This document shows, piece by piece, positions 40,512 through 46,623 of a DNA stretch of 60,975 bases. Where the stretch lies: assembly GCA_023256615.1 (NCBI GenBank), contig JAGDXO010000020.1:3587-64561 (forward strand), written 5' to 3'. The DNA comes from Thermoplasmata archaeon. GTDB lineage: Archaea; Thermoplasmatota; Thermoplasmata; Thermoplasmatales; GCA-001856825. The notes beneath the pieces are model-generated. The model did not search any database and was not told the origin of the DNA. It saw nothing but the letters and a program-made list of their open reading frames with translations. Each line of letters begins with the position of its first letter. Positions within the stretch are counted from its first letter, which is position 1. Position numbers and translations under genes: made by a program.

Positions 40512-42065
40512 ATGAACAAAGCGATATATGTGATACCGATTGTTGCTCTCTTGATTATTTCGGGAGCTTTGGCTTTCGGATACGTGAACTCGCAATCTCA
40601 GCTCAGCGCAAAAAATTCTCAAAACTCTGTCCTTTCCACAGAACTCAACAAGACACTTTCAAATTATTCAGTTCTTCAGAGCAATTATTTATCCCAGCAG
40701 AACTCGATCAAATCTTATGAGTCTAATATACAGACACTGAAATCTGAATTGTCAAGAAACCAAACTCAGGTTGTACTCAATGATGCCTTCACACACTGGG
40801 ATTATATATCAATCGAGAACATTTCTCTTGTCATGTCCCAGTATTCCAATAATGCAACTCTCAAATGGATTGGAGGCCCTCTCTCCGGAATATACACTGG
40901 GGTTAATAACATATCTGTTACCTGGAGTAAATTCTTCTCACTCTGGAGCGCTGTATGGTTTTACACACCTTTTACACCGACTGTCAGTATAAATGGAAAT
41001 TCCAGTTCTGTTATTTCAACAGTTCAATTCGTTCTGACCTCTTACAAAACTCCTCTGGAAGTGGATTATCTCAATATAAGCTATTCTCTGGGATTTGTGT
41101 ATTCAAATGGGGGCTGGTTTATAAATAATGAGACCTGGGACATTAAATCGCATGGAATTATATCATACAGTTACGCAGAATATTCATCCCTGATATTGAA
41201 CAAAATAATGAATTATTCGTTTTCACACTGGGACTATATTGCAATTGAGAATGTATCTCTACTAGTTCCGCAGTACAATAACAACGCAACTTTGGTATGG
41301 GTCGGAGGCCCGCTATCAGGAGTGCATACCGGAATTCAGAATATTACAGCAACGTGGAATAAATTCTTCTCCCTCTGGAGTGCAGTTTGGTTCTACACTC
41401 TATCCCCCCCGACACTATCAGTCATAAATAATGAATATTACATCAATGCGCAGGTCCAATGGGTACTAACATCTGCGGAAACTCCTTTGCAGGTTAATTC
41501 AATTCTCACCAATTACACCATTGAATTCTCTTATGTTAACGGTACCCCTCTGATAATGAAGGAGATCTGGCATATTAGCAGTGCAGGTTTCATATCCTAT
41601 ACTGCGAAGGAGTATGAAAATCTTCAGGCTCAGGCATTACTGAATGCATCCTTCTCACACTGGAATAATATTGCAATAGAGAATATTTCCCTTGTGATGT
41701 CTCAGTATCACCAAAATTCAACACTTTCCTGGATAGGGGGCAAACTTGCAGGAAACTACACTAATTATTCAGAAATACAGAGTACTTGGGGTAAATTCTT
41801 TAATGCTTGGTCAGCAATCTGGTTCTATTCAGAGACTCCTCCTATGATAAATGTCAACATTTCTGGTGGGGAGATTACATCCGGCACAGTAACAGCTGAT
41901 ATACAGTTTATAGTGCAAAGTTCTTCAAATTCTTCTGTCTTTGATTACATCAATGTTTTATATACAATAGATTTCAATGTTTCAAACAATAACTTCTACA
42001 TCACCAATGAAATATTTGATAACGTAGGTTCAGGACCATTATCACAAGTGGGACCGTTTACATGA
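40512..42065 (+). CDS. Surface protein with coiled coil and three tandem NTF2/SnoaL-like domains
   Basis: This 517-residue protein has an N-terminal signal anchor (about 5-24), a heptad-like coiled coil (about 28-88) and three repeats of about 140 residues starting near 90, 233 and 376. Each repeat opens with a variant of FSHWDYIAIENISLVM, continues with NATLxWxGGxLxG and ends in a WxKFFSLWSAVWFY block, a pattern like NTF2/SnoaL folds. Many N-glycosylation sequons point to an extracytoplasmic location. It overlaps the winged-helix gene by four bases. A binding or sensing role is inference. Confidence 0.75.
   Translation: MNKAIYVIPIVALLIISGALAFGYVNSQSQLSAKNSQNSVLSTELNKTLSNYSVLQSNYLSQQNSIKSYESNIQTLKSELSRNQTQVVLNDAFTHWDYISIENISLVMSQYSNNATLKWIGGPLSGIYTGVNNISVTWSKFFSLWSAVWFYTPFTPTVSINGNSSSVISTVQFVLTSYKTPLEVDYLNISYSLGFVYSNGGWFINNETWDIKSHGIISYSYAEYSSLILNKIMNYSFSHWDYIAIENVSLLVPQYNNNATLVWVGGPLSGVHTGIQNITATWNKFFSLWSAVWFYTLSPPTLSVINNEYYINAQVQWVLTSAETPLQVNSILTNYTIEFSYVNGTPLIMKEIWHISSAGFISYTAKEYENLQAQALLNASFSHWNNIAIENISLVMSQYHQNSTLSWIGGKLAGNYTNYSEIQSTWGKFFNAWSAIWFYSETPPMINVNISGGEITSGTVTADIQFIVQSSSNSSVFDYINVLYTIDFNVSNNNFYITNEIFDNVGSGPLSQVGPFT
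40779..42041 (+). repeat. Threefold internal coding repeat (three units of about 410 bases)
   Basis: Units run about 40779-41186, 41208-41618 and 41637-42041. Units 1 and 2 are the closest pair, sharing the FFSLWSAVWFYT block and NNATL; unit 3 is more diverged (FFNAWSAIWFYS). Two successive duplications are the simplest reading. The repeat is at protein level; DNA identity is moderate. Confidence 0.8.
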
Positions 42066-43926: not shown

Positions 43927-44856
43927 TTAATCCTTGAGTTCTTCCATCACCATTGAGTTATGACCATCAATGAGTAGGAGAATTGATTTATCCTTGTGCT
44001 CAAACAGCAATGACCATATTGGAATATGTACGAGGAACACATCTGATATATCCACATTTACTTCTGCTGAAAGAAATCCATGAATTCTTTTTTGAAGTCT
44101 TCTTATCTCCCACTGCTGTAACCTTATTTTACCCTCTACTCTGGCTTTTTCCTCACCTATGTATCCATTTAAGAGCTTTACTGGACCAGAGATGTCGCTA
44201 GAATTCAGTTCCCTCCTTGCTGTAAGATTAAATATGTAATCTGGAGGCTGATACTGATTGAGGCTTTCTACGGCAATGACTGGATATTTTACTTCCCCTA
44301 CATCAGTTCCTGATTCCACTACGGTTTGGAAGTTAACAGTTGGGCCTGCAAATCCACCTCTCCCCCCCATTCCTACACCTATGAAACCTCCTGGTTGCGC
44401 TTCCTCTCTCTTGAATCTATATTGTGCAGTATATCCTGCATCTATAATCCAGTAAGGAACATTCATTAACTCTATTTTTTTGAGTGTACTTTTTTCAAAG
44501 AGATGTTTATGCAGAATACTCCTGTCAAGGAAATTTCTTGCAACATTTTCTGCATCTTCCTTCATTTTTACCTTTAAGTCTAGTATAAAATGCTTGTTAA
44601 TTTTCGACCAGCCAGCCGAGCCAAGAGAAATGGATGTGCCACAATACTGGCATACTACCATCGCTTCTCCAGCTTGTGGACTCAGTGGAGCTCCACAGCT
44701 AGGACATTTCATATCTTTTAGAATTTGATCCTGCCCGACATTTGAAACCTGTGCATCCCCCTGGTTAGATTGAGGGTTTGACTGTTGTGGTGCACCACAT
44801 TTAGGACAGAATAATGAATCATCTGGAATTTGCGCTCCGCATTTTCTGCAATACAT
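43927..44856 (-). CDS. Double zinc-ribbon protein (third gene of SPFH cassette)
   Basis: This 309-residue protein begins with two zinc ribbons, CRKCGAQIPDDSLFCPKCG (3-21) and CPSCGAPLSP...CQYCG (about 51-73). A soluble region follows with two P-W half motifs, VPYWIIDAGY and HIPIWSLLF, the second followed by SILLLIDGHNS, a pattern seen in zinc-ribbon proteins with a paired beta domain. No membrane segment is visible. Its ATG follows the SPFH gene stop with no gap. It is comparable in position to YdjG in the Bacillus ydjFGHI operon, though the YdjG membrane part is missing. Confidence 0.7.
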   Translation of the reverse strand: MYCRKCGAQIPDDSLFCPKCGAPQQSNPQSNQGDAQVSNVGQDQILKDMKCPSCGAPLSPQAGEAMVVCQYCGTSISLGSAGWSKINKHFILDLKVKMKEDAENVARNFLDRSILHKHLFEKSTLKKIELMNVPYWIIDAGYTAQYRFKREEAQPGGFIGVGMGGRGGFAGPTVNFQTVVESGTDVGEVKYPVIAVESLNQYQPPDYIFNLTARRELNSSDISGPVKLLNGYIGEEKARVEGKIRLQQWEIRRLQKRIHGFLSAEVNVDISDVFLVHIPIWSLLFEHKDKSILLLIDGHNSMVMEELKD

Positions 44857-46017
44857 TTATACCACCTTCTCACCGCAGTTAGGACAGAATTTAGCCCCTG
44901 CCGGTATTTCTGTACCGCACTTTGGGCATTTCTGGCTTAACGGTTTTCCGCATTCAGGACAGAATTTTGAATTTTTTGGTATATCCTTACCGCAGTATGG
45001 ACATTTCATAGTTTCGCCCGAAGAAAAATTATATCCGCATTCAGGACAGAATTTAGCGTTTTGATCGACTGTAGCTCCGCATTTAGGGCATTTTTTCCCA
45101 CCCTGATTTTGCTGAGGTGCCTGATTTATTCCCTGAGATATATTTGATGCCATTGGATAAGCCATACCTGCTCCAGCTCCCAGACCCATCCCTATTCCAA
45201 CTCCAGCCCCTGCAGCACCCGATGTATTTTTAGCTGCGTCCACCATTGCCTGGCCCGCCTGGAATTGAAGGTAATTCACCCCGAGGACCTGCATGCTTGA
45301 TCTTGCATCTACTGCCTTTTGGACTTCATCAGGTAAAGAGATGTTAAGCCCAGAAATCTTGTTGATTTCTATCCCATATTGATCAAAAGATGATTTGGAA
45401 TTTGCCAGAACTGCTTCCTCTATATTGATGAGATTTGACGGTAGATCTAGAACGGAAATACCCTGATCTTTCATCTTGCCCAGTATACTGTAAATTAACA
45501 ATACAACCTGCTCTCTTATCCTTTCCTCTACGTCTGCACTGGTTTCAGCAGCAAATGTTCCTACAAACTGATTTATAAAAATCGATGGATCGGAAATTCT
45601 GTACCTCATTTCTCCGAATATTCTTAACATTACAACACCGAAATCTTTGTCCCTAAAGGCATAAGGTTCCTTTGAGCCAAATTTTCCGTCAAATATTCTC
45701 CTTTGAATATAGTAAACTTCTGCCTGTTGCTGAATACCTGTAAGGAGTTTTACTATTTCTCCCACAATTGGGGCATTCAAATCTGTAAGAGCAAATCTTC
45801 CAGGTTTATCAAGGTATGCTATAGCCTTTCCATCCCTGTAAAAAACGGCAGTTTCATCTTCTCTAACAACTATATTGTCGTTTAGCCTTATAAGTCTTGG
45901 AACTTTCCACATTATATTTCCCTGCTTGAACTGATCTTCCCATTCCATCGTTATGGAACCGAAAACGCTTCCTCCATTAGGTGGAATTCCGCCGGGATTG
46001 TTTTTCTTAAAAACCAT
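44857..46017 (-). CDS. SPFH-domain protein with three C-terminal zinc ribbons (COG4260/YdjI-like)
   Basis: This 386-residue protein has an SPFH (stomatin/prohibitin-like) domain at about 20-255 (VVREDETAVFYRDGKAI, then ERIREQVVLLIYSILG), an Ala/Gly-rich linker (about 265-295) and three zinc ribbons: CPKCG...CPECG near 310, CPYCG...CPECG near 339 and CPKCG...CPNCG near 364. It has no membrane anchor, like YdjI of Bacillus, which is recruited to stressed membranes. It lies between two partner genes with zero-base spacing on both sides. A membrane-stress scaffold is the best inference. Confidence 0.8.
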   Translation of the reverse strand: MVFKKNNPGGIPPNGGSVFGSITMEWEDQFKQGNIMWKVPRLIRLNDNIVVREDETAVFYRDGKAIAYLDKPGRFALTDLNAPIVGEIVKLLTGIQQQAEVYYIQRRIFDGKFGSKEPYAFRDKDFGVVMLRIFGEMRYRISDPSIFINQFVGTFAAETSADVEERIREQVVLLIYSILGKMKDQGISVLDLPSNLINIEEAVLANSKSSFDQYGIEINKISGLNISLPDEVQKAVDARSSMQVLGVNYLQFQAGQAMVDAAKNTSGAAGAGVGIGMGLGAGAGMAYPMASNISQGINQAPQQNQGGKKCPKCGATVDQNAKFCPECGYNFSSGETMKCPYCGKDIPKNSKFCPECGKPLSQKCPKCGTEIPAGAKFCPNCGEKVV

Positions 46018-46539
46018 TTAAACCCCTCCATAAAGTAACTTTTCTCTTGAATCGTTGACTGTCTTAATATTTGATAGAGTATTCATTATCTGAGATACTG
46101 AGTCCGGATTTACTACCCCGCCCATTGCATCTTGATAAAATTTATTGGCAAGTTCGTTAAGATTAACTATCTGTTGAAATATCTGCATATCAAGATCATA
46201 TAATGAGGAAATTTTATTTGCATTGACCCTGATAGGTGCTGATATTCCAGAATATCCAGCAGTATGATGCTTTATGTCAGCTGCAAGCATCTGTATTTCA
46301 GACCTTATTTTTCCAACTGACTCCAAAGCCTTGAAGTTTGCACTTGAAACCAGACCTGCCTCACCATTCTTTATAATATCTATTATGGATAGCATTTTTT
46401 TATAAAGTTCATCCTTTAAATATATATCCGCGTCCCGGAGATCTTCATTTACCCTGTAACCGTGATAACCGGGGAATATAAGCTGCAGCCTTTTTATTGT
46501 CCCCCGGTCATCTACAATTTGATCTCTAATATCTGACAT
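46018..46539 (-). CDS. Helical protein, first gene of SPFH cassette
   Basis: This 173-residue protein is predicted mostly helical, with long amphipathic stretches (LYKKMLSIIDIIKNG, then FKALESVGKIRSEIQMLAADI, then QIFQQIVNLNELANKF) and no membrane segment or cysteine. I do not recognise the family. It occupies the place that PspA (YdjF) holds in the Bacillus ydjFGHI operon but is shorter and not clearly related. Its stop abuts the start of the SPFH gene. It shares a divergent AT-rich promoter region with the malic enzyme gene. Confidence 0.65.
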   Translation of the reverse strand: MSDIRDQIVDDRGTIKRLQLIFPGYHGYRVNEDLRDADIYLKDELYKKMLSIIDIIKNGEAGLVSSANFKALESVGKIRSEIQMLAADIKHHTAGYSGISAPIRVNANKISSLYDLDMQIFQQIVNLNELANKFYQDAMGGVVNPDSVSQIMNTLSNIKTVNDSREKLLYGGV

Positions 46540-46623
46540 TGATTATGGAAATGTTTTTTATTTAAATATTTTCCCTAATATGACAATAGACAATATTTAA
46601 CAACTTTCTTTTAATTCAGGGGT

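What the first reader, a model, noticed from the sequence alone, without database searches (positions are those of the whole stretch)
43927..46539. Zero-gap helical / SPFH-zinc-ribbon / double-zinc-ribbon cassette, possible archaeal membrane-stress module
Both gene junctions have no spacing at all (stop directly followed by ATG). The middle protein is a COG4260/YdjI-like SPFH protein with three zinc ribbons and no membrane anchor; the third has two zinc ribbons; the first is an all-helical protein in the place PspA occupies in the Bacillus ydjFGHI operon. The helical protein does not look like PspA. The set could be a reduced and so far undescribed version of the bacterial envelope-stress scaffold, adapted to a tetraether membrane.
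Basis: partly seen in the sequence, partly recalled or inferred. Interest (0 to 1): 0.7.

Follow-up and report, generated by a model that had tools for sequence, protein, structure and literature searches.

The report
Archaeal SPFH scaffold with helical partner
Three back-to-back archaeal genes encode a membrane-scaffold-type (SPFH) protein, an undescribed small helical protein that accompanies it in almost every archaeon examined, and a zinc-binding accessory protein, which suggests that many archaea build this scaffold with a partner different from the one known in bacteria.

Summary
The three-gene cassette is real: H (173 aa, helical), S (386 aa, SPFH plus three zinc ribbons) and Z (309 aa, two zinc ribbons plus a YpeB/PepSY-like domain), with zero-base junctions. 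The junctions are ordinary: each Shine-Dalgarno sequence sits in the upstream gene's end, and spacing varies in relatives. The linkage is the real finding. In 389 Thermoplasmatota genomes H occurs in 122 and S in 118; 112 have both and 111 in tandem H-S. Four 'H-only' genomes proved to hold a divergent S beside H. The pair also occurs in Halobacteriota and widely in Thermoproteota; the own genome has a second H-SPFH pair. H is not PspA: no PspA/Snf7 match, a compact helical bundle, and PspA is in 3 of 389 genomes. All 78 H proteins resemble a bacterial family of unknown function (LIMLP_15305). Z resembles the described architecture of Bacillus YdjG without its membrane helix. Best explanation: a YdjI-type soluble SPFH scaffold with a dedicated helical partner (H) and a YdjG-like accessory (Z), at the membrane inner face. 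Stable conserved linkage is shown; complex formation, membrane binding and stress function are inferred. The tetraether-adaptation idea has no support.

The parts
46018..46539 (-). H: 173-aa all-helical protein, first gene; dedicated neighbour of the SPFH gene
   Evidence: AlphaFold2 pLDDT 82.8, helices 4-21, 35-65, 72-90, 107-139, 145-170; full-length match to NCBIfam NF047596 E 6.6e-8, 32.6 bits against a cut-off of 210
44857..46017 (-). S: 386-aa SPFH/Band_7_1 protein with three C-terminal zinc ribbons, no TM helix (YdjI/COG4260-like)
45286..45891 (-). SPFH (Band_7_1, PF13421) domain of S, residues 43-244
   Evidence: E 1.1e-37
45160..45216 (-). glycine-rich, glycine-zipper-like stretch of S (AAGAGVGIGMGLGAGAGMA), possible membrane-contact or oligomer element
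   Evidence: the segment after the SPFH domain has a GxxxGxxxG motif in 101 of 104 S proteins; hydropathy 1.26, below the TM threshold used
44863..45096 (-). three zinc ribbons of S, residues 308-385
   Evidence: PF13240, PF12773
43927..44856 (-). Z: 309-aa protein, two zinc ribbons plus YpeB/PepSY-like domain
44632..44853 (-). two zinc ribbons of Z (residues 2-23 and 48-75)
43930..44610 (-). Z C-terminal domain (residues 83-309)
   Evidence: pLDDT 88.5; best structural match YpeB C-terminal domain 5boi, Z 7.2, rmsd 2.1, 67 residues, 22% identity
46023..46029 (-). Shine-Dalgarno-like GGAGGGG for S, inside the end of the H gene
44862..44868 (-). Shine-Dalgarno-like AAGGTGG for Z, inside the end of the S gene
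46560..46569 (-). TATA-box-like ATATTTAAAT 21-30 nt before the H start (would give a near-leaderless transcript)
   Evidence: sequence shown; read by eye, not tested

Best explanation
The cassette encodes an SPFH-based scaffold of the soluble YdjI type with its own partners. S probably forms a ring or cage, as other SPFH proteins do, at the inner face of the membrane, touching it through its glycine-rich stretch or through partners, and offers its zinc ribbons as docking tags. H is a small helical partner that works with the SPFH protein, most likely as a stoichiometric subunit or cap, in the role of dedicated partner that PspA has in Bacillus but with a different protein. Z, two zinc ribbons plus a YpeB/PepSY-like domain, is the counterpart of YdjG and probably docks through like zinc ribbons. 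Likely job: organising or protecting the membrane, or membrane-protein quality control. Shown: gene structure, domains, predicted folds, conserved H-SPFH and Z linkage, near absence of PspA. Inferred: complex formation, membrane location, ring assembly, function.
For: H-S tandem in 111 of 389 phylum genomes, in 76 of 80 other loci, the remaining four being truncated or frame-extended cases, and in most of 40 loci from Halobacteriota and Thermoproteota, where 35 of 36 neighbouring ORFs match PF13421, the exception (L261) having a Band_7 gene on its other side. Other neighbours are conserved in at most 11 of 80 loci. Independent second H-SPFH pair in the own genome, zero gap, S E 1.5e-16 to PF01145. 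Z-like proteins near 63 of 80 and beside SPFH genes on Paracoccus and Vibrio plasmids. H itself carries an N-terminal zinc ribbon in six loci. Published frame: YdjI, YdjG/H and PspA are mutually needed for membrane localisation in B. subtilis (PMC8581546); YdjG as two ZnRs plus YpeB-related domain plus TM (PMC11237479); flotillins bind membranes without a TM helix (PMC12624060).
Against: No direct evidence of H-S binding; tandem genes can share a process without a complex. Lone H paralogues exist without an SPFH neighbour (C60 of the own genome, L067-L070, L252, L253, L262), so H has uses apart from SPFH. No TM protein in this trio. H-S distance correlation r 0.66 is what shared descent alone would give. 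No expression or stress data.
Confidence: 0.55

Rival explanations
1. H is a highly diverged PspA/ESCRT-III-like protein, so the cassette is a true phage-shock system.
For: It stands first in the operon like pspA, is all-helical, and PspA is nearly absent from the phylum. Snf7 and H are negatively associated in 81 relatives (2 of 14 Snf7 genomes have H, against 40 of 67 others, phylogenetically confounded).
Against: No PspA or Snf7 Pfam match for any of 78 H members; the model is a compact bundle with longest helix about 33 residues, unlike the long PspA hairpin (general knowledge); PDB structure matches are at the helical-bundle background.
Confidence: 0.07
2. Membrane-protein quality control: the SPFH unit modulates a membrane protease, as HflKC does FtsH, with H and Z as client or protease adaptors.
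For: An M48/HtpX-type protease gene (PF01435 E 9.8e-39) lies near the unit in L091, L109, L119, L147, L149 and L150; HflKC-FtsH precedent (PMC12624060).
Against: The protease is near in only 6 of 80 loci, on the opposite strand, and is not beside the cassette in this window; no FtsH or NfeD link seen.
Confidence: 0.2
3. A soluble, non-membrane assembly: S makes a cytosolic cage, vault-like, with H as an internal subunit; zinc ribbons bind nucleic acid or other proteins.
For: No TM helix in S, H or Z; the vault is an SPFH assembly without membrane association (PMC12624060).
Against: Many relatives add TM/zinc-ribbon proteins and small 3-4-TM proteins to the unit; the glycine-rich stretch is conserved.
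Confidence: 0.15

Closest known systems
Bacillus subtilis pspA-ydjGHI operon (PMC8581546, PMC11237479)
   Same: Soluble SPFH protein with C-terminal zinc ribbons (YdjI); an accessory of two zinc ribbons plus a YpeB-like domain (YdjG); a helical protein encoded first
   Different: H is not PspA; Z lacks the TM segment here; no YdjH/TPM gene in the trio; gene order H-S-Z, not PspA-G-H-I; wide distribution in several archaeal phyla
Methanobacteriales Meth_adaptin ESCRT loci with an SPFH/coiled-coil/zinc-ribbon protein (PMC10936438)
   Same: Archaeal SPFH protein with zinc ribbon in a membrane-remodelling context
   Different: That system has Vps4 and ESCRT-III; here no Snf7 or PspA was found in the own genome and the partner is H
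NCBIfam NF047596, LIMLP_15305 family (Leptospira; function unknown)
   Same: Full-length profile similarity to H in all 78 members scanned
   Different: All scores far below the curated cut-off of 210 bits; bacterial gene context could not be examined
SPFH-NfeD operons and the soluble SPFH8/SPFH9 subfamilies (PMC2636767)
   Same: Dedicated small partner gene beside an SPFH gene; two prokaryotic SPFH subfamilies lack TM helices
   Different: NfeD is a membrane/beta-barrel protein; H is a soluble helical bundle

Membership tests
YdjI-type (Band_7_1, COG4260) soluble SPFH proteins, for S | Band_7_1 SPFH domain | tested here: met
   PF13421 E 1.1e-37, 130 bits, cut-off 24
YdjI-type (Band_7_1, COG4260) soluble SPFH proteins, for S | C-terminal zinc ribbons and no N-terminal TM anchor | tested here: met
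Bacillus-type psp/ydj operon | PspA (PF04012) encoded with the SPFH gene | tested here: not met
   no PspA in the trio or own genome; 3 of 389 phylum genomes
Bacillus-type psp/ydj operon | Membrane protein with TPM domain (YdjH) | tested here: not met
   no TM segment or TPM match in the three proteins; rest of genome not searched
PspA/ESCRT-III, for H | PF04012 or PF03357 profile match | tested here: not met
   for H; for 78 members
PspA/ESCRT-III, for H | Long alpha1-alpha2 hairpin fold | tested here: inconclusive
   model is a compact bundle; no direct alignment to PspA made
YdjG-like, for Z | Two N-terminal zinc ribbons | tested here: met
YdjG-like, for Z | YpeB-related domain | tested here: inconclusive
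   top structural match YpeB 5boi, Z 7.2 over 67 residues, below the tool's caution line of 8; no PDB sequence-profile match to YpeB; published YdjG description PMC11237479
YdjG-like, for Z | TM segment | tested here: not met
   present in Halobacteriota and some Thermoproteota relatives
LIMLP_15305 family (NF047596), for H | Score above curated cut-off (210 bits) | tested here: not met
   32.6 bits, E 6.6e-8; homologous but outside the equivalog

The most novel reading that the evidence does not exclude
H is the founding member of an archaea-wide family of dedicated SPFH partners: a PspA/ESCRT-III-independent co-scaffold that caps or tethers soluble SPFH cages, so that a main membrane-scaffolding system of archaea has so far gone unrecognised, with a bacterial branch (LIMLP_15305 family).
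Probability: 0.35. Interest if true: 0.8.

Novelty: new variant of a known kind. Interest (0 to 1): 0.6.

Why it matters
SPFH scaffolds are found in all domains of life, yet the known prokaryotic partners are NfeD, FtsH and PspA. A small helical protein encoded beside an SPFH gene across several archaeal phyla would be a new partner class. It gives a concrete, testable entry into membrane organisation and stress handling in archaea that lack PspA.

Tried and rejected
H as PspA or Snf7: no profile match; Foldseek and VIA-align gave only helical-bundle background (top IncA, Z 12.5, where helical models typically reach 14), and no ESCRT-III/PspA chain appeared in the list, which is not evidence of absence. 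Profile search of H against PDB sequences gave only designed or coiled-coil helices. Zero gap as a functional peculiarity: explained by embedded Shine-Dalgarno sequences. Defence system: no PADLOC match beyond a weak zinc-ribbon hit to Cas12f. Sigma-70 promoter scan at shuffle level and not suited to archaea. H on plasmids by tblastn: none. The f36 ORF after H (L197, L200) looks like a diverged SPFH by eye ('KPNEACAIIxDGK') but hhalign gave probability 4%, so it was not counted. S3 against S: hhalign probability 77%, and Pfam matches directly.

Full report
What is there. On the minus strand at 46539-43927 lie three abutting ORFs, H (173 aa), S (386 aa) and Z (309 aa), exactly as described. A malic-enzyme gene starts 85 bases away on the other strand. 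The zero-base junctions come with GGAGGGG and AAGGTGG motifs embedded at the end of the preceding gene; relatives keep the motif but vary the spacing (-4, 0, +1 to +16 and more). The zero gap therefore shows only close, probably coupled, translation.

S. It is a Band_7_1 SPFH protein with three zinc ribbons and no TM helix. Its SPFH domain is strongly conserved (mean column identity 65% over 35 diverse archaeal sequences). Between SPFH domain and ribbons lies a glycine-rich stretch with a glycine-zipper motif, present in 101 of 104 relatives; a membrane or oligomer role for it is inference.

H. It has no Pfam match. AlphaFold2 with 78 homologues gives a compact helical bundle, pLDDT 82.8; PDB comparison is uninformative. 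All 78 members match NCBIfam NF047596 (LIMLP_15305, Leptospira) over nearly full length but far below its cut-off; the same family also rings weakly in Thermotoga maritima and a Bacteroides control genome. Conserved residues cluster in an N-terminal PG-Y-x-x-Y-R/D-x-R-x-x-D motif and a central H-x-x-x-G-Y-x-G motif.

Z. Behind two zinc ribbons lies a 227-residue domain predicted at pLDDT 88.5. Its best structural match is the C-terminal PepSY region of YpeB (5boi, Z 7.2, rmsd 2.1, 67 residues), followed by a PepSY-like lipoprotein and a vibriolysin propeptide. This agrees with the published description of Bacillus YdjG as two zinc ribbons, a YpeB-related domain and a TM segment (PMC11237479), but the match covers only part of the domain and Z has no TM segment here. 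The Z profile also finds zinc-ribbon/TM proteins beside SPFH genes on Vibrio and Paracoccus plasmids.

Linkage. In one sample of 389 Thermoplasmatota genomes H was found in 122 and S in 118; 112 have both and 111 have H directly before S on the same strand. Four of the 'H-only' genomes proved to have a divergent S next to H that the S profile had missed. In 80 further loci, H-S tandems were found in all where the contig allowed, one needing correction for an over-extended ORF, while no other neighbour recurred in more than 11 loci apart from Z-like genes in 63. Named hosts include Thermoplasmata, Methanoperedens, Methanocorpusculum, Methanomassiliicoccales and Nitrososphaerales MAGs. H also occurs in 10 of 139 genomes of the phylum holding Methanoperedens and in 73 of 131 of the phylum holding a Thaumarchaeota MAG. 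In 40 loci from those two samples 32 show the immediate tandem, 4 have SPFH close by in another arrangement, 1 is cut by the contig end and 3 (lone H paralogues) have none; 35 of 36 tested neighbour ORFs match PF13421, and in the remaining locus the SPFH gene lies on the other side. The own genome has three SPFH genes, two of them paired with an H gene, the second pair again with zero gap.

Variation. Many relatives add zinc-ribbon proteins with TM helices and a small 3-4-TM protein to the unit, so the fuller version elsewhere has built-in membrane anchors that this one lacks. In one lineage H itself carries a zinc ribbon. PspA occurs in 3 of 389 genomes of the phylum, so PspA is not the usual partner. 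Snf7 is absent from the own genome and tends not to co-occur with H among 81 relatives (confounded by kinship).

Interpretation. Established: an ancient, tightly linked H-SPFH pair with frequent Z-type accessories, in a YdjI/YdjG-like domain framework without PspA. Inferred: a physical complex, peripheral membrane location and a role in membrane organisation, stress or quality control, by analogy with YdjI, which PspA needs for membrane recruitment (PMC8581546), and with SPFH cages generally (PMC12624060). An ESCRT-linked SPFH/zinc-ribbon protein in Methanobacteriales was noted before (PMC10936438). No paper describing the H-SPFH pair was found in the held library; subscription papers and supplements were not searchable, so the novelty claim is limited to that.

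Limits. Only single-chain prediction was available. Co-occurrence statistics are not corrected for phylogeny. Many genomes are MAGs. The bacterial relatives of H could not be examined in context.

Noticed in passing
L187 (own genome, contig C24) 1355-2734: Second H-SPFH tandem with zero gap: H-like 160 aa followed by a 298-aa SPFH protein without zinc ribbons, flanked by two zinc-ribbon/multi-TM proteins.
   Followed up: partly
L186 4001-4507 (own genome C60); L067-L070: A lone H paralogue in the same conserved neighbourhood across the family, with no SPFH or zinc-ribbon gene beside it.
   Followed up: partly
L091, L109, L119, L147, L149, L150: M48/HtpX-type protease gene near the H-S unit on the opposite strand, in five of these with a Z-like zinc-ribbon gene beyond it.
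   Followed up: partly
L149 9406-9861; L090: Arrestin-fold protein (Arrestin_N E 1.5e-8) right after the H-S-Z genes, recalling the adaptin/arrestin links of archaeal ESCRT loci.
   Followed up: no
L178 5959-8112 (Vibrio coralliilyticus plasmid): SPFH gene and Z-like zinc-ribbon/TM gene lie near a TIR-domain gene and a TRAFs-binding-domain gene; possible bacterial conflict context.
   Followed up: no
window 40512-42065: 517-aa protein with an N-terminal TM/coiled-coil segment and three tandem copies of a domain with an 'HW-Y-IENISLVMSQY' motif, possibly NTF2/SnoaL-like; no Pfam match.
   Followed up: no
L197 2399-3694, L198, L200: H followed by a 410-431-aa protein that looks like a very diverged SPFH plus coiled coil plus zinc ribbon; profile comparison did not confirm it.
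   Followed up: partly
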